A stretch of 64,000 nt of DNA from Candidatus Jettenia sp. AMX2. Lineage in GTDB: Bacteria; Planctomycetota; Brocadiia; Brocadiales; Brocadiaceae. The position numbers and the translations under genes were made by a program. The stretch spans positions 1,727,043-1,791,042 of the forward strand of contig CP129469.1 of NCBI GenBank assembly GCA_030583665.1, written 5' to 3'. The notes under the pieces were generated by a model that did not search any database, was not told where the DNA came from, and was given only the letters and a program-made list of their open reading frames with translations. Shown here one piece after another: positions 29,753 to 53,985 of this stretch (position 1 is the first letter of the stretch; each line of letters begins with the position of its first letter).

Positions 29753-29836
29753 GCCGAAGTGGCGGAATTGGCAGACGCGCTAGATTCAGGGTCTAGTCCT
29801 CGCAAGAGGGTCAGGGTTCGACTCCCTGCTTCGGCA
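29753..29836 (+). tRNA. tRNA-Leu (anticodon CAG)
   Basis: An 84-nt tRNA with the long variable arm of class II tRNAs. The acceptor stem GCCGAAG pairs with CTTCGGC plus discriminator A. The anticodon stem CTAGA/TCTAG closes the loop TTCAGGG, giving anticodon CAG (reads CUG). The T-arm is CAGGGTTCGACTCCCTG. No CCA is encoded. The 3' half is the attachment site of the island that follows. Confidence 0.95.
29812..29836 (+). repeat. attL-like core (tRNA-Leu 3' end)
   Basis: The last 25 bp of tRNA-Leu, from the T-arm to the discriminator base, recur exactly at 40421-40445. Similarity continues imperfectly for about 35 bp beyond both copies (AAGCAGTTA). A nearby GGTGACGGTTTGGTGACGGT block occurs at 29884-29903 and 40335-40354. 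This is the usual footprint of tyrosine-integrase insertion at a tRNA gene. Confidence 0.85.
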
Positions 29837-33223: not shown

Positions 33224-33233
33224 ATTTTTTCTT

Positions 33234-33863: not shown

Positions 33864-33876
33864 AATTATTATTTTT

Positions 33877-35202
33877 CACTAGTGTCCGGTTATAAGTTAA
33901 ACAAAGACAACTGTTTATAAGGAAAGCAGGATTCGCTTTTGTAATCAAAATTTGTAAGTACTTGTAAAATAGAGACTTTCTCAAATAGGGTAATACTTAA
34001 AATTTGTAAAATTGTGTAGAGACTCATGTCTAAATTGAGATGCTTTTTGATAATTGCAACAAGCACGTAAACGGAGATAGCAATCCATATTTGAGTTTTT
34101 ACAGAGTTTTCAGAAGTACCGTAAAATGCTTTTATTCTCAAGTGTTGTTTTATCCACTTGAAAAACAACTCAATCTGCCAGCGAGATTTATAAATAAGAG
34201 CAATGGTAATAGCGGGAAGCGTAAAGTTATTCGACAGGAAAATCAATTTTTTCTGGTTTTCAGCATCGTAATAGCCCACTCGCCGCAACTTTTCAGGATA
34301 ATCTTTTGCTGAATCAGCATTTGAAAGAACTATGGTTTGATCGCATATCAGACCAAGAGACTTATCAATCGGATGGGAGTAGATTCTCCGAAATTTGAGA
34401 TTTGTTTTTGAGCGAATAACAAAGAATGCTAAGCACAAGGTGAGATTATACAACCGTGCAAAGTCGAGATACCCACGATCCATTATGTAGAAATATCCCG
34501 GCTCTAGAATAAGATCGTCAAGAACATTTATATCATGAACCTTACCATCTGTAATTTTGATAAACGAAGGAATGCTGCCGCACAAATCCATGAGAGTATG
34601 CAGTTTTATAGCTCCTTTATACTTTCTAAATTTTGCCCAGGGAAAAAGGGAAAGGCATAAGTCAATCGTTGTGGAATCCAAGGCATAGACGGTCTGATCA
34701 AGATCGATACAAAATTCACGTTACTATAAAGTGTTCTTGCTTTATGAATCAATACTTGCGCAAAATCAGCATAGATACGCCAGTCTCTGTTCTCATTTGC
34801 ATCAGCCAGAGTACTGCGAGAAACCCTACGCCGAATTCCCATATGGTAAAGTTTCTCCTGCATCGAGCGCAGGCAGGTTTCGATATCCCGGAGGCTTTCT
34901 CTGTAGGTTAATTGGGCAAATGCCATACAGAGAAATTGATCAAAGCATGAAAAGCTTTTTACTTTGTGATTACCTTCATAACGCTGAACACATTTACGAA
35001 ATTCATTCATGGGTAAAAAATCGATTACTTGTGAGAAAACAGTTTTTCCTTTGTTCATGAGCCATTCCTTTCTGTTTGTTCTGAAGAATAGATGGCTATA
35101 GTATACTCTAAATTTCAAATCGATTACGGTCTTTTTTGCTTGTATCTATCTTATATTATAGTATTTACAACAAATATTTATTTAAACGTCCGGACAGTAG
35201 TG
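33877..35202 (-). mobile_element. IS4-family insertion sequence, complete ends
   Basis: A 1326-bp insertion sequence. Terminal inverted repeats are CACTAGTGTCCGG (33877-33889) and CCGGACAGTAGTG (35190-35202), identical except one base. The 9-bp sequence ATTATTTTT flanks both ends (33868-33876 and 35203-35211), a clean target-site duplication. One transposase gene fills the element. The intact ends and duplication indicate a recent insertion, although the transposase frame is broken. Confidence 0.88.
33890..35058 (-). pseudogene. IS4-family DDE transposase, one frameshift
   Basis: The start is the ATG at 35058 after AAGGA. The first part (MNKGKTVFSQVIDFLPMNEF to WRIYADFAQVLIHKARTLYS) is the DUF4372-type N-terminal domain of IS4 transposases. 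The second part, in another frame, has the first catalytic Asp in YALDSTTIDLCLSLF, the second in IMDRGYLDFAR, and the Y-(2)-R-(3)-E-(6)-K signature in YKSRWQIELFFKWIKQ. The two halves join around 34715-34735 by a one-base shift. Without ribosomal frameshifting the product is inactive; it could be a programmed shift, but no classic slippery heptamer is evident. Confidence 0.8.
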
Positions 35203-35447
35203 ATTATTTTTCTTAAATTAAGGGTTTTTGCTATATATAGTTTTTTTTGCTCATACTACCTGAGTAGTTACAAGGAGACACAAAATATCGTACAAACATT
35301 GACTGACGCAATAACAACCTCACATAGGTTGCAGGAAAACATAGGGATTGAAAATAAACCCAAAGAATTAAGATGCGTCCCACTACACCACTAATTTATT
35401 ATGTATTTTCAGGGTTAAAAGTTATTAAAATTTTACACTATCTCTTA

Positions 35448-35669
35448 TTATTCAGATTCCCTCCTTTCTATTTCTTTTTCCAGTTCATCTAATACATTCC
35501 TAAACCTTAAATAGCCTTCTTTTGTTACTTCAGGATTCTTTAAGTAGTTATCAATCATTTTATACTTGCTTTCCATTAGATACTCTATACTGACGTTATT
35601 TACAGGAATTAATTGTGTTTCGCTTTTTGTCTTGATTGTTAATATCCCATCATGGAAATCATATATCAT
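35448..35669 (-). CDS. Small unknown protein (island)
   Basis: A 73-residue acidic protein (MIYDFHDGILTIKTKSETQL...) with a strong Shine-Dalgarno AAGGAGGAA before the ATG at 35669. The first 30 residues are beta-rich and the rest is a charged helix ending LDELEKEIERRESE. I recognise no family. The good ribosome site and compositional bias suggest a real gene. It lies between the IS insertion and the 448-residue unknown gene, and could be an antitoxin-like or regulatory small protein. Confidence 0.5.
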   Translation of the reverse strand: MIYDFHDGILTIKTKSETQLIPVNNVSIEYLMESKYKMIDNYLKNPEVTKEGYLRFRNVLDELEKEIERRESE

Positions 35670-35853
35670 TAATAATTCCTCCTTATTCTAGTCGAATTAT
35701 TTTTATAAACGCTCAGCTTAACCAAGCAGTTTCAAAGCATGAGCGAGGATACAGGCTCATGTACAAACCGTTTTAGGTCTTATCTCATATCGCAGCATCT
35801 TTTAACCTGCATTCCCGGGATACTTCATTACCACCCAAAATTACATAAGTACG

Positions 35854-37200
35854 CTATACGGTAAGCGGATAAATCTGCTGGATGTCACTGGTAAGTTGTT
35901 TCGTAAAATCCAGGTGAGGAAGACCCTTTTGCTGTAGATTGTTCAAAAGTTTCTCCATCATCTGACGTATGGTGATCGGATCGATTGTCATTGTATGCAA
36001 ACTTCCACAGGAAATACTGAGTTCAAGGGCAAGTAACTGGTTGGTTAATGCCGAATAAGGACGGTATCCCCATAAATGTTTGCCGTTTACTTTTAACAAT
36101 CTTGGTTTACTCTGGATTTTCGACAGCTCAAGAAATCTTCTGATTCCAAATTGAATCCTTTCAGAAATATCACTCCAGTCAGGGGTTATCCCCTGCAAAT
36201 GTGAGGAATAAGCAGATGCCATAATAGTAGCGGCAAGCCCTTGAAAGCTGACACGTGTGTTTCCGTGATACGGTATATCAACCGGCAGATGAGGTGATGA
36301 CCGGCATAGTTCACGTGCAATTGAAAAGGCTTGATTGCCCCATGCCACTGCATGTCCGCCTTCTGATTGAAAGCTTTGGTTAAGGCAAAACATCGCCAGG
36401 GCAAGCCGTAAATGAGACGCCCGTTCATGGTTTGCATATATTTCGGTCTCTTGGGCAAGGCTCAAGGCTTCCTGATTACTGCCTTCGTTTACAAGTTTCT
36501 CTATTTGCTTAAGGCGTTTTTTATAATCCCGTGTTTCTGCAAATGAAATCAACCCACGATATATCTGGTAACAACTACAGAATATCAGGAGGCCGCTTGC
36601 TGCCTCAGCAACATTAATCGTGAGCAGGCTAAGAGCAGTTGATGGGGAAATTCCGAAATTAGACACCAAACAGTCATACGCACTGCCGGCGCCGGCAGGT
36701 AAATAAGGGACTCCATGCGGTGTCCAGAAATCCCTTAACCAAACATGATTTAACCATTCAATGATACCGATATGTCCATGTCCAAAGGTAAGCTCAAGTA
36801 ATGCACTAAGATCGTGTCCATGCGTTAACCGGTGTGCCCATCCTCCTGCATATTCAGCCCCCGGGGCAGTATCCATCCAGATGCTTATCTCACGTGCTGT
36901 TTCCGGATCAAATATTCTTCGCAACAATTGTTGTATAGCCGCACCGTCGTGATCCATTAGGCCACGGGTAAAACGGGTAATCTCGCCTGCATTTATAAAC
37001 ATGCCATTTGCTGCTGCGGTGTAAACCATTGCCAGACTCACATGGCGGGGAACATGCCTATCCTTAAGCATCGCAAGAGGATTCTTAGAAATTCTCAGGC
37101 AGCCAACATTATCTCCTGAAATAAGCGATGTCTTTTGTACCAGCCATCTGCTTGCTCTTTGTGTTTTTTCTTTAAATCCAAATCCCATAGTAAATTTCAT
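35854..37200 (-). CDS. Unknown 448-residue protein with His-rich core and one hydrophobic segment
   Basis: I do not recognise this protein. Its N-terminal half has a dense set of His, Trp, Asp and Arg residues: GWAHRLTHGHDLSALLEL, FGHGHIGIIEWLNHVWLRDF and WTPHGVPYLPAGAGSAYDC (about residues 120-180). These look like metal-binding or catalytic motifs. A hydrophobic segment ALSLLTINVAEAASGLLIF (about residues 190-208) could cross the membrane. The C-terminal half (from KKRLKQIEKLVNEGSNQEAL) resembles TPR-like helical repeats and ends in a helical domain. It lies 109 bp after the helicase gene on the same strand and may belong to the same island module. Confidence 0.65.
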   Translation of the reverse strand: MKFTMGFGFKEKTQRASRWLVQKTSLISGDNVGCLRISKNPLAMLKDRHVPRHVSLAMVYTAAANGMFINAGEITRFTRGLMDHDGAAIQQLLRRIFDPETAREISIWMDTAPGAEYAGGWAHRLTHGHDLSALLELTFGHGHIGIIEWLNHVWLRDFWTPHGVPYLPAGAGSAYDCLVSNFGISPSTALSLLTINVAEAASGLLIFCSCYQIYRGLISFAETRDYKKRLKQIEKLVNEGSNQEALSLAQETEIYANHERASHLRLALAMFCLNQSFQSEGGHAVAWGNQAFSIARELCRSSPHLPVDIPYHGNTRVSFQGLAATIMASAYSSHLQGITPDWSDISERIQFGIRRFLELSKIQSKPRLLKVNGKHLWGYRPYSALTNQLLALELSISCGSLHTMTIDPITIRQMMEKLLNNLQQKGLPHLDFTKQLTSDIQQIYPLTV

Positions 37201-37309
37201 ACCAAGCCCTCCCTATAATAACGGTAAAGCCTATTTAACGCTGTGAAGCGAGCGATATAGCATTCAATTTTACAAGTAAACATATTCTGTTCTTTAGCGT
37301 ATTCTTTTA

Positions 37310-38719
37310 TCAATGGCACTCGGAATATTCAGGCCATGTCCTTCCGTACTCTCTGAGATTTTGCGCACAGGAAACAACCGTCAGGTAACCACCCCCAACA
37401 TGTCTTTTGATGCGGGTTAATCCTGTATAAATAAGGGCAAGCGACCTGCTGGCAGCATTTGGATCAACATATACAACAAGCGCACGTGATTCCCATCCCT
37501 TGAAGCTATGCAAAGTTGTTGCCCTGATGCCTGATACCCCTCTTGCATAGAAGTGCATTCTTCGCCTTCGTGCTTCCCGGTCATTATTACCGTTCGTAAA
37601 TGTATGAATAACCCTCACACCTTGTTCGTCTAATCGGGCAACGACTTCACGTCCAAAGTTGTTGATCCCGGTAAGAAATGTAATATCAGGGATTGCAAGT
37701 ATCCCCGGACCTGCATTCGGGGCCATGGAAAGAATCTCATTTGTACACACCCTTAACGCCTGATCAGCATTCGTCTGTATCCATCTTAGCTTGCAAGGGT
37801 ATAAATCTAATTCTCCCTGCACTGATACAGGAGGATCGACGTTATCCTGAGGGAGAAATTGTTCTGCAAACTCTCTTGCGTATTTCAGTGCCTTTGGCGG
37901 CAAACGGTAACTAATCTCTAATTTTCCAAACTTACCAGAAAAGCCTGCGCCTGTCATTTTTTCATCCGTCCATGCCTTAGCAGTACCATAAATGTCCTGC
38001 GTTGCGTCTGCAACAAGCAGCATTTCTCCTTCTTTCCGGCAGACCTTTCTGAGGGCATTCCACCAACCCGGAAGGAAATCCTGCCCCTCATCTACCAGCA
38101 CTGCATCGTACCTCGGAATGACATTTGCCTTATCTTCATCAATTATTTGAGAGACCAGTTCCGGTAGTCTATGATCCAACACTTCTTCCCGGGGATGTTC
38201 ATTCCATAATACCTTATATTCTTCTTCGCGGTTGCACTCCTGACATACGCGCTTACACCAGTGGTGAAAGTTCAGCCAGGTGATGTTCTTTCCTGTTTTT
38301 CCGGGAGGTGCGGGAGGTATGGGTACACGACCTACCATAGGTAAATTACCTACTAGACGCTTAATTTTATTTATCTTCATAACATCTGAAGGTAGGCGTT
38401 TAACTTTATCTATTATATTTTTCTTTTCGATCATAACATTGGGAGGTGCGGGCCAACGGGCTGCCAGACCCTTTAAATAATGCAGAAGCGTAATATTGTA
38501 AGTGACAACCAGTACCTCCTTTCCTTCGCCAAACAATTTAGCTGCACGTGCAACCAAAACCAGTGATTTCCCGGTACCTGCTGGGCCTTTGATACGGCGA
38601 TATCCAGAGTCTGTTCGGGTTGTAACATAAGATAGCTGCTTCTCACTTAATTCCAGAGGTTCTCTCTGTTCAGCTAAAAAGTCAGATTCTGCCAGCCAGC
38701 ATCTTAAATCCTTCGCCAA
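37310..38719 (-). CDS. UvrD/Rep-like helicase (C-terminal part of split NERD-helicase gene)
   Basis: A 469-residue superfamily 1 helicase domain. Walker A is IKGPAGTGKSLVLVARAA (about residues 44-61), Walker B is AVLVDEGQDFLPGW, motif III follows at LLVADATQDIYG, and the C-terminal region has ISYRLPPKALKYAR and the motif V/VI-like TLHSFKGWESRALVVYVD and LIYTGLTRIKRHVG. Such proteins unwind DNA with 3'-5' polarity. The predicted start is a TTG directly after an in-frame TGA; the sequence then continues in the frame of the NERD protein, so the two were probably one polypeptide of about 668 residues. Confidence 0.85.
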   Translation of the reverse strand: MAKDLRCWLAESDFLAEQREPLELSEKQLSYVTTRTDSGYRRIKGPAGTGKSLVLVARAAKLFGEGKEVLVVTYNITLLHYLKGLAARWPAPPNVMIEKKNIIDKVKRLPSDVMKINKIKRLVGNLPMVGRVPIPPAPPGKTGKNITWLNFHHWCKRVCQECNREEEYKVLWNEHPREEVLDHRLPELVSQIIDEDKANVIPRYDAVLVDEGQDFLPGWWNALRKVCRKEGEMLLVADATQDIYGTAKAWTDEKMTGAGFSGKFGKLEISYRLPPKALKYAREFAEQFLPQDNVDPPVSVQGELDLYPCKLRWIQTNADQALRVCTNEILSMAPNAGPGILAIPDITFLTGINNFGREVVARLDEQGVRVIHTFTNGNNDREARRRRMHFYARGVSGIRATTLHSFKGWESRALVVYVDPNAASRSLALIYTGLTRIKRHVGGGYLTVVSCAQNLREYGRTWPEYSECH

Positions 38720-39313
38720 TCATTCGTTCATATACCGGGAACTCTGCCTGTTGTACTTAGGAAACACTTTGTTTATATTTCCGGTATGAATTGAACCCGC
38801 CCCCGACACTGGATAGTTTTGTGGATATTGGGACATTCTACGATAATGCAGGCATGGTGATAATAGGGATCTGACTTCGTTCTCTCTGGCAAACGGGAAG
38901 ATGATACCGGCAGTAATAACAACAAATCCTGCCCTCTGATCCAGTCCCGGACAATATAATTCATGAAGTTCCTGTTTGTATCGGTAAATCTGTTCAACCG
39001 GATTTTTGCATTGAATAGTAGCCTGTTCTCCATTTTTTCTCGCAAGCAAAACAGGTGGTTTACCAGGCCTTTCTTCGACCCAGTACTTCATTGTATCCAA
39101 ATCCCAATCCTTGACTTCAAACACTGCAATACCAGCGTTAGGGTGTAGCAATACAAAGTCCGGGCGCAATCCGTTCAGGTGTGGTTGAAGGTAGATTTCC
39201 CATTCAGGCGGAAGGTGCTGATGAAAGAAATTGAACACCAGCCGTTCTCCCTCAGTCAGTGGCGGTTGCAGTTTATCTAACTGGTTAACCGGTGGCGATA
39301 CAATTCGGGGCAT
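38720..39313 (-). CDS. NERD nuclease-related domain protein (N-terminal part of split gene)
   Basis: A 197-residue protein with a NERD domain, a restriction-endonuclease-like fold. After a short N-terminus (PPLTEGERLVFNFFHQHLPP) come the catalytic-type residues in GLRPDFVLLHPNAGIAVFEVKDW (Asp, then Glu-x-Lys), and a Gln/Tyr helix EQIYRYKQELHELYC. The end (VFPKYNRQSSRYMNE) is the linker seen in NERD-helicase fusions before the helicase. A TGA at 38720-38722 then stops translation in the same frame in which the helicase follows. The gene is therefore a fusion broken by one nonsense codon, or two proteins. Confidence 0.8.
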   Translation of the reverse strand: MPRIVSPPVNQLDKLQPPLTEGERLVFNFFHQHLPPEWEIYLQPHLNGLRPDFVLLHPNAGIAVFEVKDWDLDTMKYWVEERPGKPPVLLARKNGEQATIQCKNPVEQIYRYKQELHELYCPGLDQRAGFVVITAGIIFPFARENEVRSLLSPCLHYRRMSQYPQNYPVSGAGSIHTGNINKVFPKYNRQSSRYMNE

Positions 39314-39432
39314 GTCTCATTGTCTCCTATTGATTTAACGATTTGAAGATTTCTTCAAAATGAACCAGACCATTACTGACTACTGTTTTTTAAGATCATA
39401 TCATTTAAGTATTGGTTAGTTTCGTCCGCCTG

Positions 39433-39879
39433 TCACCGTTCTGCGGTACGAATAGCTGCTGCACGTTGTTCAAACTCCGCAGCTTTTTTCCCCCGCCGAG
39501 TCGCCCGATACAATTGGGCCAAATTAGTAAGGCAATTGGCTACATCGGGATGGTCAGGGCCGAGAGATTTCTCATAGATCACTAATACACGTTTATAAAG
39601 TGGTTCGGCCTGTGCATATTGGCCTTGAATACGGTATATATCTGCAAGGTTATGCAGGCTCGTGGCTACAGAAGGATGATCAGTCCCGACTTTTTTTTCT
39701 GCTACCTCCAGCGCTTTCTTTGCCACCACTTCTGCACGGTCGTATTGTCCCTTCAGATAAAGTTCCCCGACCTCCTTGTTGAGGGTGTCCCACAAAATGC
39801 CAGCCCCTTGCGCAAACAACACAGACTTGGCCAGAAGTATAAAGACCACTTCAACGGATAGGACTTTGATTACTTTCAC
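39433..39879 (-). CDS. Secreted TPR (kinesin-light-chain-type) repeat protein
   Basis: A 148-residue exported protein. The first 23 residues form a signal peptide (VVFILLAKSVLFAQ). Three TPR_12-like repeats follow: EVGELYLKGQYDRAEVVAKKALEVAEKKVG, then HPSVATSLHNLADIYRIQGQYAQAEPLYKR and a DHPDVANCLTNLAQLYRATRRGKKA motif. The repeat arrangement resembles kinesin-light-chain TPRs and is shorter than usual for such proteins. It is likely a protein-binding scaffold in the periplasm. It is the last gene before the right end of the island; the DNA-end is about 540 bp further on. Confidence 0.8.
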   Translation of the reverse strand: MKVIKVLSVEVVFILLAKSVLFAQGAGILWDTLNKEVGELYLKGQYDRAEVVAKKALEVAEKKVGTDHPSVATSLHNLADIYRIQGQYAQAEPLYKRVLVIYEKSLGPDHPDVANCLTNLAQLYRATRRGKKAAEFEQRAAAIRTAER

Positions 39880-40680
39880 AGATTCCCTTCCTTTCCTGTA
39901 CGGCTAACAAGTTCTTTTATTCTATAATTATCGGAATGTTCCAACGAAAAAATAGACATTTTTTAAAAGAATTTAGACTCTCATCATAGTGTATTTTCCC
40001 GTTTCTGAAACATCTGGCTAAAACTCATGAAGACATACAGGCCAAACAGGCGGGTAATGCGAGGAAGGAGAGGGTCGCATCTGAAAATTAACCAACTGTT
40101 GGGGACCAAATTACTTTACCCATTTTTGCAGTCTCTATTTTGCTGCTTCGCGTGGAATCCCCTCATCATGAATGAGTCTTGCAATATTCTTAACAAATTT
40201 TCTTTAATTTGACAAATCGTACTTTTAACAACTTCAATTTTTCTATTTGTTACTGTTTAATTAGGTATGGCCGCCTGAATATGGTATGCTGATGTGAAGT
40301 ATTTTATCCCTTTATTTTTACAACGAGTAAAAGGCATTCTGGTGACGGTTTGGTGACGGTTTTTTAGTGGGGTCAAAAGTCATAAGTGCTTGATATGTAA
40401 GGATATTGTTTTTAAATACACAGGGTTCGACTCCCTGCTTCGGCACTCTAACCTCATTGTGAATCAAGCAGTTACAAATCATATTTTTACGCATAGGCAC
40501 ATTGGACATTTATATTTACACGCTTCAACTTTGTCTATCTTCACAACCAATAATTCAATCGTAATAACTGGCGCTGGCCAATAAGGGCTTACATCCAGTA
40601 AATGCCCGTAGTTTGTGCGCTTCCGTACGGCAACTTTGTCGGCTGTGGCCTTGTAAAGACCGGTTGAAAAGTGCTGCAAA
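39880..40680. other. Right island border, no genes
   Basis: About 800 bp without a supported gene. It holds the GGTGACGGTTTGGTGACGGT copy (40335-40354), then the attR-like copy of the tRNA-Leu 3' end (40421-40445) and the AAGCAGTTACAAATCA flank similar to the left side. The remaining short frames are unsupported. Confidence 0.65.
40421..40445 (+). repeat. attR-like copy of tRNA-Leu 3' end
   Basis: Exact 25-bp copy of 29812-29836, from the T-arm to the discriminator base of tRNA-Leu(CAG), without the rest of a tRNA. It marks the right end of the 10.6-kb island. Confidence 0.85.
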
Positions 40681-40717
40681 ACGAGCCACCTGCAACGACG
40701 AACGGCAGGTAGCTCGT
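40681..40717 (-). terminator. Hairpin terminator of left sulP copy
   Basis: On the minus strand, ACGAGCTACCTGC pairs with GCAGGTGGCTCGT across an 11-base loop and is followed by TTTTGC. It lies 31 bp beyond the sulP stop codon. The right sulP copy lacks the second half, because the duplication ends inside it. Confidence 0.7.
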
Positions 40718-42500
40718 TTACAAAGGGGTATGCTGCTGTTATGGAGTTTATGCGGTCTGTTCTTTTGCAGTGACGATACGATGCGCCGACTGCAGCGCTT
40801 CCAGACGCGTTTTGTACCAATGATCCGGCGGTATCAGAGTAAGGACGTTTAGGCCCTCCAGCACCTTTCTTACCCTGGCATTCATGCCCGATAGATACAG
40901 TTCCCTCCCGCTGTGGCGGCAGGTCTCTGCGATGGTCTCCACCGCCTTGGCTGCCGACAGATCCAGCATCGGCATGTTGGAAAAGTTGAGGATAACGAAC
41001 CTTGTTGCTTTCTTGGATTTGAGGCGCACGTGGTGACCAAGATCCGCTGCTGCACCGAAACAAAGCGGGCCGTCAAAATCGAACAGCAAGACCCCGCCGT
41101 TAGTCTCCTTGAGCAACGCCTTTTCCTGTTCGTTGGATATCTGCTCCTCCGTATCCCCAAGGGTCTGCAGTTGCAGATAGGCAATCTGTTTCACAAAGGC
41201 AAGCGATGCCAGCACCACACCCACAGCCACCCCTGTGATCAGGTCAACCAGCACGGTAAGACCCAGCACTATTGCCATTAGGATGAGGTCCCATCGTGGA
41301 CCCATGTGGGCGCGCCGCAGGTAACCCCAGTCGATGGTGTCGTAGCCAACCTTGATCAGTATGCCTGCCAGCACGGCATGCGGGATCATCGAGGCAAGCG
41401 GTCCCAGGGCCAGCACTACCGCCACCAGCAGCATTGCATGCATCATGCCCGACAGACGGGTCAGGCCGCCGGCCCGAACATTAATCACCGTACGCATGGT
41501 GGCGCCTGCGCCCGGAACACCACCAAACAGACTGGAAATGGTGTTACCGATTCCCTGACCAATCAGCTCCCGGTTGGAATCATGGCGCGTACGCGTTATG
41601 TTGTCGGCTACCAGGGATGTCAACAGGGTATCCACGGCGCCTAACAGGGCGAGTACGACGGCAGCTTCGATAATAATACGCATAGAATCCTGAGACATAG
41701 TTGGAATCACGAATGATGGCAGGCCGGTAGGAATACTGCCAATGATCGGGGCTCCCGGTACCAATACGCTGATGGTCGTGCAGATGATCAATGCGGCCAG
41801 CGGGGATGGCATGTACCTCCTCAGAGTTCTGGGCCACAAGAACACGATGAGAAGGCTCAGTACCGTCAGCACCACGGCATGCATGTTCGGATTCTGCACC
41901 GCATTTGGAATGGCTGCCAGCGCTGCCATAACACCGCCGCCTCCGGAGTCGTGACCGAACACTCGCGCGAGCTGCAGCGAGATGATAATGCAGCCTATAC
42001 CACTCATAAAACCCGATGTTACAGGATACGGCACCAGGCGTATGTAATGCCCTACCCGGCATGCACCCATTACGATCTGCAAGATGCCGGCCAGCGCTAC
42101 ACACATAAGAACCAGTGAGGGGTCATGCACTCTGGCAAGCACCCCGGCAAACACCACCACCATAGGGCCGGTGGGGCCGGAGACCTGCGACTGGGTACCC
42201 CCGAATAAGGAGGCAAAAAATCCCACGAAGATGGCACCCCATAGACCGGCGATAGGTCCCATCCCTGAAGCTTCCCCGAACGCCAGTGCCAGCGGCAGGG
42301 CAACTACCCCTGCGGTGATCCCCCCGAAAATATCACCTTTAAGATTACTGGTGTCAAAATAAGATGTTAGTCTGGTAAATATGCCGTTATGAAACTTTTT
42401 AGACGATTTGGTAGTTGTTACCTCGTTCATGAACCTTCGGTCTGGAACCCTTTCTACCTGAGCAAAAAGAAGGAAATAAGGGAAATTGACCGTCCTCCGT
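40708..42500. repeat. Left arm of 1.8-kb inverted repeat (sulP)
   Basis: The left arm is nearly identical, in inverse orientation, to 42985-44778. It covers the whole sulP gene, about 70 bp upstream and about 40 bp downstream, ending at GAGCTACC. The arms are separated by about 485 bp, so they could pair as a large cruciform or recombine to invert the spacer. Confidence 0.88.
40748..42430 (-). CDS. SulP-family inorganic anion transporter, left copy
   Basis: A 560-residue SLC26/SulP transporter with STAS domain. About 10-12 membrane segments span residues 25-430, with SulP signatures GITAGVVALPLALAFGEASG, FGGTQSQVSGPTGPMVVV and GIGNTISSLFGGVPGAGATMRT. The C-terminal STAS domain (about 440-550) holds GGVLLFDFDGPLCFGAA and FVILNFSNMPMLDLSAAKAVE. 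SulP proteins carry sulfate, bicarbonate or other anions; the substrate here is unknown. The gene is duplicated head to head at 43055-44737 with about 11 substitutions in 560 residues. No sulfate-assimilation or carbonic anhydrase gene is adjacent. Confidence 0.92.
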   Translation of the reverse strand: MNEVTTTKSSKKFHNGIFTRLTSYFDTSNLKGDIFGGITAGVVALPLALAFGEASGMGPIAGLWGAIFVGFFASLFGGTQSQVSGPTGPMVVVFAGVLARVHDPSLVLMCVALAGILQIVMGACRVGHYIRLVPYPVTSGFMSGIGCIIISLQLARVFGHDSGGGGVMAALAAIPNAVQNPNMHAVVLTVLSLLIVFLWPRTLRRYMPSPLAALIICTTISVLVPGAPIIGSIPTGLPSFVIPTMSQDSMRIIIEAAVVLALLGAVDTLLTSLVADNITRTRHDSNRELIGQGIGNTISSLFGGVPGAGATMRTVINVRAGGLTRLSGMMHAMLLVAVVLALGPLASMIPHAVLAGILIKVGYDTIDWGYLRRAHMGPRWDLILMAIVLGLTVLVDLITGVAVGVVLASLAFVKQIAYLQLQTLGDTEEQISNEQEKALLKETNGGVLLFDFDGPLCFGAAADLGHHVRLKSKKATRFVILNFSNMPMLDLSAAKAVETIAETCRHSGRELYLSGMNARVRKVLEGLNVLTLIPPDHWYKTRLEALQSAHRIVTAKEQTA

Positions 42501-43054
42501 TAAAAATTTTTTAAAGAACTGTTACCTTTTTCCTGACATATACAAACAAACTGATGAACTATTTTGATACTTACCTCCTATACGATGCATCATATTAATA
42601 TTTGTTGTTATTACTGGGAACTTCGCATAAAAATAAATTGTTAAATATTTTTATTGCATAAGCTCAAATATCATTCCAAAATATTTCTTTAATATTACCT
42701 TGCTGATAAAATACCATTATTAGTACTTAATCATTCCGTAGTTAAGACCCAACTATTAAAATATCCCGTGTGTTTGATGAGCTAATCATTACATATTCTA
42801 TTATTTCACAATGAAATATCTCTTTCAATCTGTAATTGTGAATAATTTTTATTTTACAAGTATGGATTTCTTATGCTCACGGCTTAAAATAATTTTATTG
42901 TAAAATAATTTTTTTATTGTATAATTCCCGACATTATATAGTTTTTAGTAAAGTTATTATAAAAATTTACAAGGAAAATATAAAACAGGGGACGGTCATT
43001 ACCCCTTATCTCCTTCTTTTTGCTCAGGTAGAAAGGGTTCCAGACCGAAGGTTT
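42431..43054. other. AT-rich spacer between the two sulP copies
   Basis: The outer 70 bp on each side belong to the inverted repeat (for example GCTCAGGTAGAAAGGGTTCC on the right and its reverse complement on the left). The middle, about 42500-42985, is unique, very AT-rich and has no gene. It must hold divergent promoters for both copies; a possible -10 box TATAAT lies at about 42920-42925, oriented toward the right copy. Confidence 0.6.
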
Positions 43055-44737
43055 ATGAGCGAGGTAACAACTACCAAATCGTCTAAAAAGTTTCATAACG
43101 GCATATTTACCAGACTAACATCTTATTTTGACACCAGTAATCTTAAAGGTGATATTTTCGGGGGGATCACCGCAGGGGTAGTTGCCCTGCCGCTGGCACT
43201 GGCGTTCGGGGAAGCTTCAGGGATGGGACCTATCGCCGGTCTATGGGGTGCCATCTTCGTGGGATTTTTTGCCTCCTTATTCGGGGGTACCCAGTCGCAG
43301 GTCTCCGGCCCCACCGGCCCTATGGTGGTGGTGTTTGCCGGGGTGCTTGCCAGACTGCATGACCCCTCACTGGTTCTTATGTGTGTAGTGCTGGCCGGCA
43401 TCTTACAGATCGTAATGGGTGCGTGCCGGGTAGGACATTACATACGCCTGGTGCCGTATCCTGTAACATCGGGTTTTATGAGCGGCATAGGCTGCATTAT
43501 CATCTCGCTGCAGCTCGCGCGCGTGTTCGGTCACGACTCCGGAAGCGGCGGTGTCATGGCAGCACTGGCAGCCATTCCAAATGCGGTGCAGAACCCGAAT
43601 ATGCATGCCGTGGTACTGGCGGTACTGAGTCTTCTCATCGTGTTCTTGTGGCCCAGAACACTGAGGAAGTACATGCCATCCCCGCTGGCCGCATTGATCA
43701 TCTGCACGACCATCAGCGTATTGGTACCGGGAGCCCCGATCATTGGCAGTATTCCTACCGGCCTGCCATCATTCGTGATTCCAACTATGTCTCAGGATTC
43801 TATGCGTATTATTATCGAATCTGCCGTCGTACTCGCCCTGTTAGGCGCCGTGGACACCCTGTTGACATCCCTGGTAGCCGACAACATAACGCGTACGCGC
43901 CATGATTCCAACCGGGAGCTGATTGGTCAGGGAATCGGTAACACCATTTCCAGTCTGTTTGGTGGTGTTCCGGGCGCAGGCGCCACCATGCGTACGGTGA
44001 TTAATGTTCGGGCCGGCGGCCTGACCCGTCTGTCGGGCATGATGCATTCAATGCTGCTGGTGGCGGTAGTGCTGGCCCTGGGACCGCTTGCCTCGATGAT
44101 CCCGCATGCCGTGCTGGCAGGCATACTAATCAAGGTTGGCTACGACACCATCGACTGGGGTTACCTGCGGCACGCCCACATGGGTCCACGATGGGACCTC
44201 ATCCTAATGGCAATAGTGCTGGGTCTTACCGTGCTGGTTGACCTGATCACAGGGGTGGCTGTGGGTGTGGTGCTGGCATCGCTTGCCTTTGTGAAACAGA
44301 TTGCCTATCTGCAACTGCAGACCCTTGGGGATACGGAGGAGCAGATATCCAACGAACAGGAAAAGGCGTTGCTCAAGGAGACTAACGGCGGGGTCTTGCT
44401 GTTCGATTTTGACGGCCCGCTTTGTTTCGGTGCAGCAGCGGATCTTGGTCACCACGTGCGCCTCAAATCCAAGAAAGCAACAAGGTTCGTTATCCTCAAC
44501 TTTTCCAACATGCCGATGCTGGATCTGTCGGCAGCCAAGGCGGTGGAGACCATCGCAGAGACCTGCCGCCACAGCGGGCGGGAACTGTATCTCTCTGGCA
44601 TGAATGCCAAGGTAAGAAAGGTGCTGGAGGGCCTAAACGTCCTTACTCTGATACCGCCGGATCACTGGTTCAAAACGCGTCTGGAAGCGCTGCAGTCGGC
44701 GCATCGTATCGTCACTGCAAAAGAACAGACCGCATAA
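43055..44737 (+). CDS. SulP-family inorganic anion transporter, right copy
   Basis: A 560-residue near twin of the left SulP gene, in opposite orientation. The ATG at 43055 is homologous to the left start; a 46-residue extension to 42917 is open but lies in the spacer and is not conserved. All membrane signatures and the STAS domain are retained. Differences are mostly conservative: V/L, A/V, G/S, T/A, R/K, two A/S, R/H, R/K, Y/F and N/S. Both copies are intact, so both should be functional, with possible differential expression from the divergent spacer. Confidence 0.92.
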   Translation: MSEVTTTKSSKKFHNGIFTRLTSYFDTSNLKGDIFGGITAGVVALPLALAFGEASGMGPIAGLWGAIFVGFFASLFGGTQSQVSGPTGPMVVVFAGVLARLHDPSLVLMCVVLAGILQIVMGACRVGHYIRLVPYPVTSGFMSGIGCIIISLQLARVFGHDSGSGGVMAALAAIPNAVQNPNMHAVVLAVLSLLIVFLWPRTLRKYMPSPLAALIICTTISVLVPGAPIIGSIPTGLPSFVIPTMSQDSMRIIIESAVVLALLGAVDTLLTSLVADNITRTRHDSNRELIGQGIGNTISSLFGGVPGAGATMRTVINVRAGGLTRLSGMMHSMLLVAVVLALGPLASMIPHAVLAGILIKVGYDTIDWGYLRHAHMGPRWDLILMAIVLGLTVLVDLITGVAVGVVLASLAFVKQIAYLQLQTLGDTEEQISNEQEKALLKETNGGVLLFDFDGPLCFGAAADLGHHVRLKSKKATRFVILNFSNMPMLDLSAAKAVETIAETCRHSGRELYLSGMNAKVRKVLEGLNVLTLIPPDHWFKTRLEALQSAHRIVTAKEQTA

Positions 44738-44998
44738 ACTACATAACAGCAGCATACCCCTTTGCAAATGAGCTACCCACGGTATTGATTGGTGGGGGGC
44801 ATGCCGGGAGAATAATAGTACCGTGCTAATGCCCGAGGCAACAGAGACGAGGGATAATGGTAAACCGCTACGAGGAACTATGGCAGTAGATCACTTTCGC
44901 TATTTTGCCGGTGTTATAAATGTAACATGATCTTTCAGTTTGTATTTTTTTCTCCAACCATCCAGTTGTGAATACTGTCTGAAGTAACCGTAACAGCC

Positions 44999-45984: not shown

Positions 45985-46839
45985 ATGAAACAGAGAGGCC
46001 GTAAGGCAACTATTATCATGATCATCTGTAACGCATTTCTGTTCTTCATAAAAATCACAGCAGGTATCACGTCGAACAGTTTAGCGGTTATTTCCGATGC
46101 AGTAAATTCCGTTACTGATCTGATTGCATCAATAATTATATTCTTTGCGGTAAAAACCTCTTCAAAACAGGCTGATGAAGGGCATCCTTTCGGCCATCAC
46201 CGGGCTGAACCAATAGCCGGATTGATTGTGGCAATCCTTGTTGGTATTTTAGGATTTGAGATACTGCGGACTTCTGCATTTGATTTACTAAAAACCGATA
46301 AGGAGTACCATATCAGCCTCTATACAGTTATCGTACTTCTCGTCTCGATAGGTATGAAGTTTGTGCTGTCTGTTTATTTTAAAAAAACCGGCCGTACTAT
46401 CCGGAGTCCTGCCCTGCTAGCGAGTTCCGTTGACAGCAGAAATGATGTATATGTATCTGCCACCGCTCTGACGGGGGTTGTTTGCGGATATTATGGTATT
46501 CACCAGATAGATACTGTTATGGCGTTATTTATCAGCTTCTGGATAATCTACTCTGGTTACAAGATCGGTACCCAAAATATCGACTACCTTATGGGCAAGC
46601 AGCCGGAACCAGCTATTTTGGAAGAGATACAAAGAAAGGCTGGCTCCATTGCAGGCGTTACCGGAATTCATGACGTCCGCGCACATTATGTTGGCAATTA
46701 TATCCATGTTGAAATCCATATATCTTTAGATCAACATTTAACATTAACGGAAGCGCACGGAATCGGGAAAAACGTCCAAAGGGCTATTGAAGGTATGGAA
46801 AGTATTCATAAGGCCTTTGTGCATATAGATCCAATATAG
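45985..46839 (+). CDS. Cation diffusion facilitator family transporter
   Basis: A 284-residue CDF metal/proton antiporter. Six membrane segments lie at about residues 8-30, 36-55, 76-97, 110-130, 150-168 and 175-193. Metal-site motifs are SDAVNSVTDLI in helix two and DSRNDVYVS in helix five, each with two acidic/Asn ligands, and the family HPFGHHR(A)EP loop follows helix two. The C-terminal cytoplasmic domain (from EEIQRKAGSIAGVTGIHDVRAHYVG) carries the ferredoxin-like fold with His. Zn2+, Fe2+, Co2+ or Ni2+ may be exported. Proximity to hyp genes raises nickel homeostasis as a possibility, but the sequence does not fix specificity. Confidence 0.9.
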   Translation: MKQRGRKATIIMIICNAFLFFIKITAGITSNSLAVISDAVNSVTDLIASIIIFFAVKTSSKQADEGHPFGHHRAEPIAGLIVAILVGILGFEILRTSAFDLLKTDKEYHISLYTVIVLLVSIGMKFVLSVYFKKTGRTIRSPALLASSVDSRNDVYVSATALTGVVCGYYGIHQIDTVMALFISFWIIYSGYKIGTQNIDYLMGKQPEPAILEEIQRKAGSIAGVTGIHDVRAHYVGNYIHVEIHISLDQHLTLTEAHGIGKNVQRAIEGMESIHKAFVHIDPI

Positions 46840-46913
46840 CGTTTGATAAAGAAATTGCCTTTCCGTACAATTATTCTGCAATATGAAAACGATAACAATG
46901 TAAGGATAGAAAA

Positions 46914-47255
46914 GTGCATGAGATGTCAATCACCATGAGCATGATGGATATTGTTAAATATCATATGGTGGAAAACGGAGTAAAACAGTTGAAAAAACTA
47001 AAGATACGAATTGGCAAGCTAACTGCCATTGAACCGGAATCACTTATTTTTTGTTTTGAGGTCTATACCCGCAACACTTCAATGGAGGGGGCGATATTGG
47101 AAATAGAAAATACACCTTTGATTGGAAGATGCAATAATTGTAGGAAAGAATTTTACCGTGAAGAATATTTTTCAAATTGCCCTGTTTGCAACAGTGAAGT
47201 AGTTGAAAACATCTCTGGCCGTGAACTTGATATCATTTCCATAGAGGCAGAATAA
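46914..47255 (+). CDS. hypA: Hydrogenase nickel metallochaperone HypA
   Basis: A 113-residue HypA that delivers Ni2+ to the NiFe hydrogenase large subunit with HypB. The nickel site MHEMSI is at the N-terminus (His2, Glu3), and the zinc site is CNNCRKEFYREEYFSNCPVCNSE near the C-terminus. The gene ends in an ATGC overlap with hypB (1 bp), so the two are translated together. The ribosome site is AAGG-like (GTAAGGATAG). Confidence 0.95.
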   Translation: MHEMSITMSMMDIVKYHMVENGVKQLKKLKIRIGKLTAIEPESLIFCFEVYTRNTSMEGAILEIENTPLIGRCNNCRKEFYREEYFSNCPVCNSEVVENISGRELDIISIEAE

Positions 47256-47947
47256 TGCATGATATTTTCATAGGCGAGAACATACTCTCACGAAATAAGG
47301 AAATTGCTGCTGAAAATAAAAAAATGTTGAAAGAGAGAAATATCTTTTCAATCAACATGGTAAGCTCTCCTGGTTCAGGCAAAACTACTATTATTGAAAA
47401 GACCATTGGATGCTTAAAGGACCGGATCAAGCTGGCCGTTATCGAAGGCGATATACAGACAAATCTGGACGCACAAAGGATATCGCAATACAATATCCCG
47501 GTAAAACAGATAACCACAGGAAGGGCCTGCCATCTGGATGCCCATATGATCCACCATACCCTGCCCTGGCTTTTTGAACAAGGGGACATTCAGATGCTTA
47601 TTATTGAAAACGTGGGAAATATGGTATGCCCTGCAGAATATGCCCTCGGCGAAGATATGATGATTGCAGTGATGAGCGTTACGGAGGGAGATGAGAAGCC
47701 GCTGAAATACCCTGCCATATTTTACGCATCCGGAGCCCTTCTTGTCAATAAAACCGATCTTCTGACGTATACAAATTTTACCATAGAAAAGGCAGTGAAA
47801 AATGCATTGAGGATAAACCCAGGATTAAAGATTTTTACGGTTTCATGTACAACCGGTGAGGGAATCAAAGACTGGTGTGATTTTCTTGTGGATAAGGTTG
47901 GACAATCGGCAATAATTCACCGCAAAGACACAAAGAACGCAAAATAA
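47255..47947 (+). CDS. hypB: Hydrogenase nickel incorporation GTPase HypB
   Basis: A 230-residue SIMIBI-class GTPase. The P-loop SSPGSGKTT is at residues 37-45, followed by AVIEGDIQTNLDAQRIS, the nickel/dimer site GRACHLDAHMIHH and the base-recognition LLVNKTDL. The N-terminal His-rich nickel store and CxxGC motif of E. coli-type HypB are missing, so this is the short form. It starts immediately at the end of hypA. The C-terminus (FHRKDTKNAK-like tail) reads into a repeat-like sequence. Confidence 0.95.
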   Translation: MHDIFIGENILSRNKEIAAENKKMLKERNIFSINMVSSPGSGKTTIIEKTIGCLKDRIKLAVIEGDIQTNLDAQRISQYNIPVKQITTGRACHLDAHMIHHTLPWLFEQGDIQMLIIENVGNMVCPAEYALGEDMMIAVMSVTEGDEKPLKYPAIFYASGALLVNKTDLLTYTNFTIEKAVKNALRINPGLKIFTVSCTTGEGIKDWCDFLVDKVGQSAIIHRKDTKNAK

Positions 47948-48532
47948 AACTTTAAATAATAAAAGACAGATTTTCTCTTCTTTCGTAATAACAGCTGTAA
48001 ATTTATTGCATAGGAATTTTCATTTTAATGAAGCGGGTTTGCGGGGAGGTGTTGTTATAAGGTTGGTGATGGTAATATGATACGATAGTGTTTGTCCCAG
48101 TTCATGATCAGAACACTGTCAGGGTTGAGAACCCTGACAGTGTTAATTTCCATTCGACCCTACGTGTAGCTACAAACAAAGTCGCCGAAGGTCTAATTTA
48201 TGGGTAAATATGAGGTAACCCCGATGGGGTGGTATAAAACAACGATAATTCCGAAGGGATAGTATGAAGAATCTGTATTCTCTGTCACCCCTTCGGGGTT
48301 TAACCTATGTTTTGTACTTTTACTATAATCATGACATCCCTTCGGGATTAAAAAAGTGGCAACTTATCAAATCCCACCCTAACTTGACCGGGGAAACAGA
48401 TAATCTTATTTTTAGAAAATTCAGTTATGTTATTGCCGGTAAATCGCACTTCGATCAGGTATGGTCAACCATAGAGCCGGAACTTTCTATTCATAATAGA
48501 AACCCTACATAGAGTAATTCAAATCATTTTCC
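47948..48532. repeat. Repeat region between hypB and hypF
   Basis: Contains an AACACTGTCAGGGTTGAGAA...CCTGACAGTGTT inverted pair (48110-48145), a CCCCGATGGGG / CCGAAGGG block and a family B element (48281-48352). These split the maturation operon, so hypF may have its own promoter. Confidence 0.75.
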
Positions 48533-50923
48533 ATGAATCCAAAAACACGCATCACGATAACGGGTATTGTCCAGGGGGTAGGTTTTCGTCCCTTCATCTA
48601 TCATCTTGCAAATAAATACAACCTCAAAGGCTTTTGTCTGAATAATTCCCGGGGTGTATTTATCGAAGTACAGGGCGATATGGTCGACGAATTCATCCGG
48701 GAGATAAAGACATCACCCCCTCCTCTTTCAAAAATAGAAAAACTTACTTCGCATAGTATTTTCAGCAATGAAGTTTTTGAAGATTTTCGTATTCGTGAAA
48801 GCTTGACTTATGAAGGAGAATTTGCCTTAGTATCACCAGACATCTCTGTTTGCCATGAATGCCTGAAAGAGCTTTCGGATCCTTATGACAGGCGATACCG
48901 TTATCCGTTTATAAACTGTATAAACTGCGGTCCCAGATACTCTATTATCAGGGATATCCCTTATGACCGGTCATCAACCACCATGGCCTCTTTTTCTCTG
49001 TGTGAGGAATGCAACCGTGAGTACCATGATCCGGCAAACCGGCGATTCCATGCCCAGCCGAATGCCTGCCCCGCCTGTGGACCTGCCGTATGGCTGGTTG
49101 AAAAAGGGCAAAAGCCTGATCTTTGTATAAAGAACACAAACTACCCGGCCATCCGGAAGGCAAAAGAACTTCTTCAGGAAGGAGCTATCATTGCCATAAA
49201 AGGACTCGGTGGATTTCACCTTGCCTGCGATGCTACAAATAACGACGCAGTAAGAAGGCTCAGGGAGAGAAAGAGAAGATCCAATAAACCCTTTGCCCTG
49301 ATGGCCCCGGATAGTGAAACCGTACGAAGCTTCTGTCTTGTTTCTGAAGAAGAAAAGGCAATACTCGAAGGAAGAATCCGCCCTATCGTAATTCTCAAAA
49401 AAAGTTTGCCAAACCCTGTCTCAGACACCGTTGCACCCAATAATAACCATTTTGGGCTAATGCTCCCCTATACCCCCCTTCACTACCTTCTTCTCGAGCC
49501 GGAAGAAATACGTTTTACCGCACTGGTAATGACGAGTGGGAACAAATCTGAAGAGACCATTGTAATCACAAACGAAGAGTCTGTCGAAAGGCTCTCCTCT
49601 CTTGCAGATTTTTTTCTCCTGCATAACAGGGACATCTACATGAGGGTTGATGATTCAATAGTAAGGAGTCAAAGACGCATAATACCGGACCTCAAAAGAT
49701 CTGAGATTTCAGACTCAATATATGAAAACCAGGAAATTACATCTCAGATTCAAATTATCCGCCGGGCAAGGGGATTTGTTCCTGAAACGATTGATTTAGA
49801 AGAGGAGATGGCAGATATACTGGCTTGCGGTGCAGAACTGAAAAATACCTTTTGTCTTGTAAAACAGAAAAAAGCCATACTGAGCCAGCACATAGGAGAT
49901 CTGCAAAATTACGACACCCTCGAATTTTTTAAGGAATGTCTTAAAAATCTGAAAAACACCTTCCGGATAAATCCCCAAATAATAGCCCATGATCTCCATC
50001 CTGATTATTTGAGTACAGGATTTGCCCTGGAATACGCGGCACAAACGGATATTCCGCAGTCACACATTATACCGGTGCAGCATCATCATGCCCATATTGT
50101 AAGTTGCATGACGGAGCATCATCTTAACCGTAAAGTAATAGGTATTGCCTTTGACGGTACAGGATACGGTACTGATGGTAATCTCTGGGGTGGAGAATTC
50201 CTGATCGCCGGCAAAGGAAATTTTATAAGAAAGGCCCATCTTCAGTATATCCCCATGCCCGGCGGTGATAAGGCAGCAAAAGAACCATGGAGAATGGCAA
50301 TTGCTTATCTCTACAGTGCTTTTGGTAATGATATGTTTAATGCCTTACCCTCTTTCCTGAATCGGTTCAATAAAAAAGATCTTGTCCTTATCATTACCAT
50401 GATAAAAAACAGCCTCAATTCCCCGTTATCCTCCAGTGCTGGCCGCCTTTTTGATGCCGTATCTTCTCTCCTGGGAATATGTGACAGGATAACATTTGAA
50501 GGTGAGGCTGCCATAGGATTAGAAACTGTAGCAGAAGATCATGATGAAAAAGATGCAAAATCATATCCATTCAAAATTATAAGCGGGATACCTATGCTTG
50601 TTGATCTGAAACCCCTTGTCCTATCAATAGTGGAAGACATCAATAAAGGAGTAAAGGTCACAGCAATATCTTTGAACTTTCATGTAACACTGGCTACTAT
50701 TATTGCAGAGATTTCAAAGATAATAAAAGAAGAGATGGGAATACGGGATGTCATTTTATCCGGTGGAGTATTTCAAAATAATCGTTTATTAACATTAGCC
50801 GTTGAACTCCTTAAGAAAGACGGTTTTGTTGTTTGGACTCACGGACTGGTGCCTGCGAATGACGGTGGAATTTCCCTGGGCCAGGCAATTGTGGCATGGG
50901 AGAAATTCAAAAGCAGCACGTAA
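48533..50923 (+). CDS. hypF: Carbamoyltransferase HypF
   Basis: A 796-residue enzyme that turns carbamoyl phosphate into the CN ligand precursor for the NiFe site and carbamoylates HypE. Domains are acylphosphatase (about residues 1-90, VQGVGFRPFIYHLA), two zinc fingers (CHECLKELSDPYDRRYRYPFINCINCGPRYS and CEECNREYHDPANRRFHAQPNACPACG), YrdC-like (from about 205, AIIAIKGLGGFHLACDATN), and the Kae1/HypF C-domain with VQHHHAHIVSCMTEH and GIAFDGTGYGTDGNLWGGEF. The length is normal. It follows the repeat gap and precedes hypC by 478 bp of repeats. Confidence 0.95.
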   Translation: MNPKTRITITGIVQGVGFRPFIYHLANKYNLKGFCLNNSRGVFIEVQGDMVDEFIREIKTSPPPLSKIEKLTSHSIFSNEVFEDFRIRESLTYEGEFALVSPDISVCHECLKELSDPYDRRYRYPFINCINCGPRYSIIRDIPYDRSSTTMASFSLCEECNREYHDPANRRFHAQPNACPACGPAVWLVEKGQKPDLCIKNTNYPAIRKAKELLQEGAIIAIKGLGGFHLACDATNNDAVRRLRERKRRSNKPFALMAPDSETVRSFCLVSEEEKAILEGRIRPIVILKKSLPNPVSDTVAPNNNHFGLMLPYTPLHYLLLEPEEIRFTALVMTSGNKSEETIVITNEESVERLSSLADFFLLHNRDIYMRVDDSIVRSQRRIIPDLKRSEISDSIYENQEITSQIQIIRRARGFVPETIDLEEEMADILACGAELKNTFCLVKQKKAILSQHIGDLQNYDTLEFFKECLKNLKNTFRINPQIIAHDLHPDYLSTGFALEYAAQTDIPQSHIIPVQHHHAHIVSCMTEHHLNRKVIGIAFDGTGYGTDGNLWGGEFLIAGKGNFIRKAHLQYIPMPGGDKAAKEPWRMAIAYLYSAFGNDMFNALPSFLNRFNKKDLVLIITMIKNSLNSPLSSSAGRLFDAVSSLLGICDRITFEGEAAIGLETVAEDHDEKDAKSYPFKIISGIPMLVDLKPLVLSIVEDINKGVKVTAISLNFHVTLATIIAEISKIIKEEMGIRDVILSGGVFQNNRLLTLAVELLKKDGFVVWTHGLVPANDGGISLGQAIVAWEKFKSST

Positions 50924-50989
50924 TTTACAATTTACCAGGAAAGAAAATATTTGATGGAATAACAGGATTAATATGATATAAATAAATCA

Positions 50990-51325
50990 GGCCTTCGGCG
51001 ACTAAAAAACACATTTTCCCTCCCTTGACGGGAGGGATTAAGGGAGGGTGATCACAGATTGTTCCTTTCACCCCCACCTAACCTCCCTGCCTGTGCTGTG
51101 CGACAGCACACAGACAGGCGACGGCAGACAGGCCCCATCAAGGTGGAGAAATACCTGGTTTGGAATTCCTGAACATTAAATCCAGATAAACAAGAAATCA
51201 ATTTTATTGGAATTTCCATTTTATTTCACCGCTAGATGATAAATATGGCCCTGTCAGAAGCAGCCCGTTGGGCATACAGAAAGATCGCTGTAGGGGCGAG
51301 GTGACCTCGCTCCTGCAACTTTCCA
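50990..51325. repeat. Repeat region between hypF and hypC (family G and others)
   Basis: Carries a family G pair (CCCTCCCTTGACGGGAGGG, 51019-51040, and the inverted CACCTAACCTCCC half at 51075-51090) with GCCTGTGCTGTGCGACAGCA hairpins, then GTAGGGGCGAGGTGACCTCG (51291-51310). No gene is seen. Confidence 0.7.
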
Positions 51326-51401
51326 TGATTTTTAAATATGCGTATTCATGAGCAATACCCACCATATTGATTTAACTTAAATTGTATAGGGATTTCAAAC
51401 C

Positions 51402-51629
51402 ATGTGCCTGGGAATACCTGGAAGGATCGTAGAAATCACAACTGATATTATGGCAAAGGCCGATGTTGCTGGCACCAGAAAGGAAATAAATCTTATGCTG
51501 GTGGAAGATGTCCGCATTGGCGATTATGTAATTGTTCATGCAGGTTTTGCGATACAAAAGGTGAATGAACAGGAGGCACAGGAAACGTTAAGGATATTGA
51601 AAGAATTCACTGAGGGTATGTCTCCTTGA
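51402..51629 (+). CDS. hypC: Hydrogenase assembly chaperone HypC
   Basis: A 75-residue HypC/HybG/HupF family protein. The N-terminal MCLGIPGRI with the essential Cys2 binds HypD and the hydrogenase precursor during Fe(CN)2CO assembly. Next, DYVIVHAGFAIQKVNEQEA is the usual beta-barrel and helix. The gene overlaps hypD by 4 bp (ATGA-type junction: stop at 51627-51629, hypD start at 51626). Confidence 0.95.
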   Translation: MCLGIPGRIVEITTDIMAKADVAGTRKEINLMLVEDVRIGDYVIVHAGFAIQKVNEQEAQETLRILKEFTEGMSP

Positions 51630-52732: not shown

Positions 52733-52801
52733 CAACCCCGAAGGGGTAACATAAAGCACAGATTTTTGCTAAAAATGTAAAAATTTATCTTTGAAGGTAC
52801 T

Positions 52802-53812: not shown

Positions 53813-53904
53813 TAATTTAACATTAATGTTTCGTTACCGAAGGCCTATGGTACTGAAAGCATCAAACCGAACATATTCTCAACTGCTAAAGAGACTACCC
53901 ATCG

Positions 53905-53985
53905 GTCATTGCGAGGGTCTTTTCCGAAGCAATCCCAAAGGCAAAGACTGCTTCGTCGCTCCACTTCTCGCAATGACATTTTTTC
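53905..53985. repeat. Family D repeat between hypE and hydrogenase operon
   Basis: TCATTGCGAGGGTCTTTTCC and its inverted counterpart (CTTCGTCGCTCCACTTCTCG) form an imperfect long hairpin. It occupies part of the 362-bp gap; the remaining AT-rich 54040-54174 should contain the hydrogenase operon promoter. Confidence 0.7.

What the first reader, a model, noticed from the sequence alone, without database searches (positions are those of the whole stretch)
40708..44778. Head-to-head 1.8-kb inverted duplication of a SulP transporter
Both copies are intact, about 98% identical in protein sequence, and include about 70 bp of upstream and about 40 bp of downstream DNA. Inverse arms around a short AT-rich spacer can invert by homologous recombination and often arise by replication-based rearrangement. 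Keeping two copies suggests selection for dosage or for different regulation of an anion transporter.
Basis: seen in the sequence. Interest (0 to 1): 0.6.

Follow-up and report, generated by a model that had tools for sequence, protein, structure and literature searches.

The report
Inverted BicA-like bicarbonate transporter gene pair
An anammox bacterium carries two intact, 98%-identical copies of a gene, apparently acquired from another bacterial lineage, that probably imports bicarbonate; they sit head to head around a short AT-rich promoter region, which is a real but fairly ordinary gene duplication.

Summary
Arms 40708-42510 and 42975-44777 (1,803 bp, 43 mismatches, no indels) flank a 464-bp, 24% G+C spacer. 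Each holds an intact 560-codon SulP gene; the proteins differ at 11 residues. The genome is a single 3.46-Mb contig with these two SulP genes only. The 43 differences and unlike outer flanks argue against an assembly artefact.

The host is an anammox bacterium (hydrazine synthase present). The gene looks foreign: 56% G+C against about 43%. The nearest homologues are 60-63% identical and mostly alpha- and gammaproteobacterial; the sister species has no close homologue. The protein resembles the cyanobacterial bicarbonate transporter BicA and keeps all six HCO3-/Na+ site residues. A beta-carbonic anhydrase gene lies directly upstream in 71 of the 80 nearest loci. No alpha- or beta-carbonic anhydrase was detected in the host.

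Best reading: a transferred BicA-type gene duplicated in inverted orientation, both copies under purifying selection (dN/dS about 0.20), possibly with patchy gene conversion. The left copy keeps a strong terminator hairpin; the right copy breaks off inside its stem, so the right is probably derived. Spacer inversion could not be tested. The pair lies just outside a tRNA-Leu genomic island. New member of a known kind.

The parts
40748..42430 (-). SulP_L: intact 560-aa BicA-like SulP transporter (Sulfate_transp + STAS domains)
43055..44737 (+). SulP_R: intact 560-aa paralogue, 549 of 560 residues identical to SulP_L
40708..42510 (-). Left arm of the inverted repeat
42975..44777 (+). Right arm of the inverted repeat
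42511..42974 (.). 464-bp AT-rich spacer (24% G+C), unique in the genome and inferred to hold the divergent promoters
40674..40723 (-). Terminator-like hairpin after SulP_L (-28.6 kcal/mol, z = -5.6 for the stretch 40665-40725). The right arm's similarity stops inside the 5' half of this stem
29812..29836 (+). 3' end of tRNA-Leu(CAG), att-like direct repeat copy 1 (neighbouring island, not part of the pair)
40421..40445 (+). Exact second copy of the 25-bp tRNA 3' end: the far boundary of the neighbouring island, 262 bp before the left arm

Best explanation
This is a BicA-type SulP transporter gene that an anammox bacterium acquired horizontally. It was then duplicated in inverted orientation and is kept as two divergently transcribed, functional copies. 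Each protein most likely imports HCO3- together with Na+ by the elevator mechanism of BicA, with its STAS domain on the cytoplasmic side. The two genes share an AT-rich intergenic region from which each would be transcribed outward. The copies stay alike by purifying selection and perhaps by occasional gene conversion between the arms. Shown: the duplication, intactness, foreign composition, homology, conserved substrate-site residues and clustered mismatches. Inferred: HCO3- as substrate, duplication within this lineage, right copy derived from left, gene conversion, and a benefit from higher gene dosage.
For: Arms and mismatches: (dN/dS 0.20; Fisher P = 1.8e-5 for synonymous excess). Mismatch clustering: 18 of 30 coding differences within 320 bp, P = 5e-5; a 406-bp identical run, P = 0.006. 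Foreign origin: G+C 56% and GC3 0.63 against about 0.40 for three host genes; no close homologue in the sister species or family; nearest homologues 60-63% in Alpha- and Gammaproteobacteria. In the tree the two copies are sisters, inside a clade of almost only proteobacterial sequences. Bicarbonate: best NCBIfam model BicA at 531 bits against 311 for DauA and 291 for sulP; best solved structure 6KI1 (BicA); all six site residues listed in PMC13249358 are conserved in both copies; beta-carbonic anhydrase directly upstream in 71 of 80 nearest loci. Right copy derived: terminator hairpin z = -5.6 on the left, z = -0.3 on the right.
Against: The BicA model score (531 bits) is below its curated cut-off (880), so equivalence to BicA is not established. 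No carbonic anhydrase gene accompanies the pair. No transport, expression or read data exist here. Mismatch clustering could also reflect uneven constraint. The donor is unknown (63% is the best match), so the duplication could have happened before the transfer. The host also has a DabA-type inorganic-carbon gene, so the pair is not its only candidate system.
Confidence: 0.65

Rival explanations
1. The two SulP proteins move sulfate or another anion rather than bicarbonate.
For: The Pfam family is broad (PF00916 'Sulfate permease'), and the BicA model is matched below its cut-off.
Against: BicA is by far the best-scoring NCBIfam model and nearest solved structure. The six HCO3-/Na+ site residues are invariant, and relatives sit behind a beta-carbonic anhydrase.
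Confidence: 0.25
2. The inverted pair is an active recombinational switch: crossing-over between the arms flips the spacer and swaps the promoters that drive the two genes.
For: The arms are 98% identical with perfect runs of 406, 295 and 192 bp, long enough for RecA-dependent recombination. The spacer is asymmetric.
Against: The proteins are nearly equivalent, so a swap would change little. No recombinase gene is part of the unit. No alternative orientation was seen, but only one assembly was available.
Confidence: 0.06
3. The pair is an assembly artefact (one gene folded back into an inverted duplicate).
For: Inverted repeats can confuse assemblers (general knowledge); no reads were available to check.
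Against: 43 differences concentrated at silent sites, different outer flanks, a 464-bp unique spacer and a complete single-contig assembly.
Confidence: 0.03
4. The pair is cargo of an integrative element at tRNA-Leu and still mobile.
For: The tRNA-Leu 3' end is duplicated at 40421-40445 and an integrase gene lies next to the tRNA. The pair is the next feature. In relatives with SmpB, tRNA-Leu and the cation-efflux gene close together there is no SulP between.
Against: The pair lies outside the direct repeats. No third att copy occurs beyond it in the window.
Confidence: 0.15
5. The two copies were acquired separately from related donors.
For: Both are foreign in composition.
Against: They are sisters with short branches (0.011 and 0.0095) and share upstream and downstream non-coding sequence, which fits duplication better.
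Confidence: 0.05

Closest known systems
BicA (SulP-family Na+/HCO3- symporter of cyanobacteria; structure 6KI1)
   Same: Domain order Sulfate_transp + STAS, similar length, all six HCO3-/Na+ site residues conserved, best NCBIfam model and best solved structure.
   Different: Scores below the BicA equivalog cut-off; host is an anammox bacterium; present as an inverted pair.
can2-sulP gene cluster of Proteobacteria (e.g. Acidithiobacillus ferrooxidans, PMC6458275)
   Same: SulP whose nearest relatives lie directly downstream of a beta-carbonic anhydrase.
   Different: Here no carbonic anhydrase is adjacent, and none of the alpha or beta class was detected in the genome.
Duplicate gene pairs kept alike by gene conversion (e.g. 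tufA/tufB of enterobacteria; from my own knowledge)
   Same: Two near-identical functional copies with mosaic identity.
   Different: Adjacent and head to head rather than far apart; conversion is only inferred.

Membership tests
SulP / SLC26 transporter family | Sulfate_transp membrane domain followed by a C-terminal STAS domain | tested here: met
   PF00916 at 292 and 294 bits, PF01740 at 55 and 54 bits, all above gathering cut-offs
BicA bicarbonate transporter | Score above the NCBIfam BicA equivalog cut-off (880 bits) | tested here: not met
   531.7 and 530.5 bits. It is therefore called BicA-like, not BicA
BicA bicarbonate transporter | HCO3-/Na+ site residues T69, D258, T262, G300, A301, T302 of BicA | tested here: met
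   T87, D267, T271, G309, A310, T311 in both copies; site residues as listed in PMC13249358, with the chain index offset by one
BicA bicarbonate transporter | Na+-dependent HCO3- uptake | not testable with these tools
   Needs a transport assay
can-sulP bicarbonate uptake cluster | Adjacent beta-carbonic anhydrase gene | tested here: not met
   No beta-carbonic anhydrase (PF00484) found in the host genome, although 71 of 80 nearest relatives have one upstream
Invertible DNA switch | Both orientations present in a population | not testable with these tools
   Only one assembly, no reads

The most novel reading that the evidence does not exclude
The 1.8-kb arms recombine often enough to flip the 464-bp spacer, exchanging two different promoters between two bicarbonate transporters. 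That would give reversible, population-level variation in inorganic-carbon uptake in an anammox bacterium that lacks alpha- and beta-carbonic anhydrases.
Probability: 0.05. Interest if true: 0.55.

Novelty: new member of a known kind. Interest (0 to 1): 0.3.

Why it matters
Anammox bacteria grow by fixing inorganic carbon, and I found no paper in the searchable library on SulP bicarbonate uptake in them. If the assignment holds, this host supplemented or replaced its relatives' carbonic-anhydrase equipment with a transferred bicarbonate transporter and doubled it. That would be a simple example of dosage gain after gene transfer, and testable by comparing growth or uptake of this host with its sister species at low bicarbonate.

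Tried and rejected
A viral-contig scan found no relative, and plasmids gave only 42.5% cyanobacterial matches, so no mobile vector or donor was identified. Rfam found no riboswitch or other RNA in the leader or spacer, only the tRNA elsewhere in the window. The leader sequences do not fold better than shuffled sequence. I checked whether the 80 nearest loci carry a similar head-to-head pair: none does; five have a second, distant SulP (25-29% identical) nearby. I first suspected that the long SulP proteins of other anammox genomes were SulP-carbonic-anhydrase fusions; for the one scanned, Pfam showed instead a weak P-II-like tail below cut-off. Literature searches found no paper on SulP bicarbonate transport in anammox and no close bacterial precedent for this exact arrangement; the library is incomplete, so this is weak evidence.

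Full report
Observation. The inverted repeat is real. Its arms are 40708-42510 and 42975-44777, each 1,803 nt, 98% complementary, with 464 nt between. An ungapped comparison gives 43 mismatches: 10 in the 80 bp upstream of the start codons, 30 in the coding sequence and 3 in the 40 bp downstream. Both ORFs are intact at 560 aa and differ at 11 residues. The host genome is a single 3.46-Mb contig, and these are its only two SulP genes. Artefact is unlikely: the two copies differ at 43 sites, mainly silent ones within the genes, and their outer flanks are unrelated.

Host. Hydrazine synthase (PF18582) matches the host genome at two places and is found in most relatives, with no match in the 14 control genomes, so the host is an anammox bacterium. 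The genus is not named by the tools. In the SulP search, 38 relatives from the same genus, family and order were compared.

Foreign origin. The coding sequences have 56% G+C and GC3 of 0.63. The window is 43% G+C, and three host genes have GC3 near 0.40. The sister species' best SulP is 33% identical; the best in the sampled order is 48%. Among about 85,000 GTDB species the nearest homologues are 60-63% identical and come mostly from Alpha- and Gammaproteobacteria. In a maximum-likelihood tree the two copies are sisters (support 100) inside a clade made almost only of proteobacterial sequences (support 99), with one row labelled Bdellovibrionota. The exact donor is unknown: the nearest-neighbour placement is weak (support 80) and the branch leading to the pair is long (0.74).

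Likely substrate. The best NCBIfam model is the bicarbonate transporter BicA (531 bits; the sulP model gives 291), but the score is below the BicA cut-off of 880. The best solved structure is 6KI1, named 'low affinity sulfate transporter' in the file, which from my own knowledge is Synechocystis BicA. A review lists Thr69, Ala301, Asp258, Thr262, Gly300 and Thr302 as the HCO3- and Na+ site of BicA (PMC13249358). The equivalents T87, A310, D267, T271, G309 and T311 are present in both copies and in all 76 aligned homologues. In 71 of the 80 nearest loci a beta-carbonic anhydrase gene lies directly upstream on the same strand. This resembles the can2-sulP cluster of Acidithiobacillus ferrooxidans, where SulP is predicted to carry bicarbonate (PMC6458275). 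Bicarbonate is therefore the most likely substrate, by inference.

Carbon equipment of the host. No beta-class (PF00484) or alpha-class (PF00194) carbonic anhydrase was found in the host. Of the eight other family members in those two searches, six have both and the sister species has a beta-class enzyme. Gamma and other classes were not tested. The host does have one DabA-type gene (PF10070), as does its sister, so the SulP pair is not its only candidate system for inorganic carbon.

How the pair evolved. Synonymous divergence is 0.044, non-synonymous 0.009, ratio 0.20: both copies appear to be under purifying selection. At the 11 differing residues the state common among relatives is sometimes on the left and sometimes on the right, and the end branches are about equal, so neither copy looks decayed. 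Mismatches are clustered: 18 of 30 coding differences within 320 bp (P = 5e-5), with identical runs of 406 and 295 bp. Patchy gene conversion would explain this, but uneven constraint is not excluded. After the left gene there is a strong hairpin (-28.6 kcal/mol, z = -5.6) that is probably its terminator. The similarity between the arms ends inside the first half of that stem, and the equivalent stretch after the right gene does not fold better than shuffled sequence (z = -0.3). The right copy is therefore probably the derived one; later erosion of its flank is the alternative.

Surroundings. A 25-bp exact copy of the 3' end of tRNA-Leu(CAG) (29812-29836) lies at 40421-40445; a 24-base core of it occurs at only these two places in the genome with up to two mismatches. 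A gene for the catalytic part of a tyrosine integrase lies next to the tRNA (29909-30439), and the 20-mer GGTGACGGTTTGGTGACGGT occurs just inside both ends (29884 and 40341). This marks a 10.6-kb genomic island. The SulP pair begins 262 bp beyond it and so is outside. In one relative the order SmpB, tRNA-Leu, cation-efflux gene is kept without SulP (L148), and in another the same three genes lie close together without SulP (L169). The pair was therefore probably inserted into this interval in the host's lineage, at or beside an integration hotspot.

Verdict. A real, intact inverted duplication of a horizontally acquired BicA-like transporter, most likely a dosage gain. Inversion of the spacer remains possible but unsupported. 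Nothing here needs a new kind of system.

Noticed in passing
29812-40445: 10.6-kb genomic island between two exact 25-bp copies of the tRNA-Leu(CAG) 3' end, with an integrase gene (176 aa), a DprA-like gene, a DDE transposase, UvrD-like and NERD-domain genes, and a repeated 20-mer just inside both ends.
   Followed up: partly
L147 (G002:C86) 5348-5372 and 6702-6726: A family member also has a second copy of the tRNA-Leu 3' end about 1.35 kb from the tRNA, suggesting that this tRNA is a recurrent integration site.
   Followed up: no
host genome C1:383159-383473 and 1143185-1143499: Two hydrazine-synthase-alpha matches with equal scores, so the gene appears duplicated in the host; some relatives also show two.
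   Followed up: no
host genome C1:2848781-2851924: An unusually long DabA-type open frame (1,099 aa), shared with the sister species (1,105 aa), whereas other family members have frames of about 885-897 aa.
   Followed up: no
45985-59938: Cation-efflux gene followed by hyp maturation genes and a nickel-iron hydrogenase cluster, next to the SulP pair.
   Followed up: no
61041-61550: TspO/MBR family gene near the end of the window.
   Followed up: no
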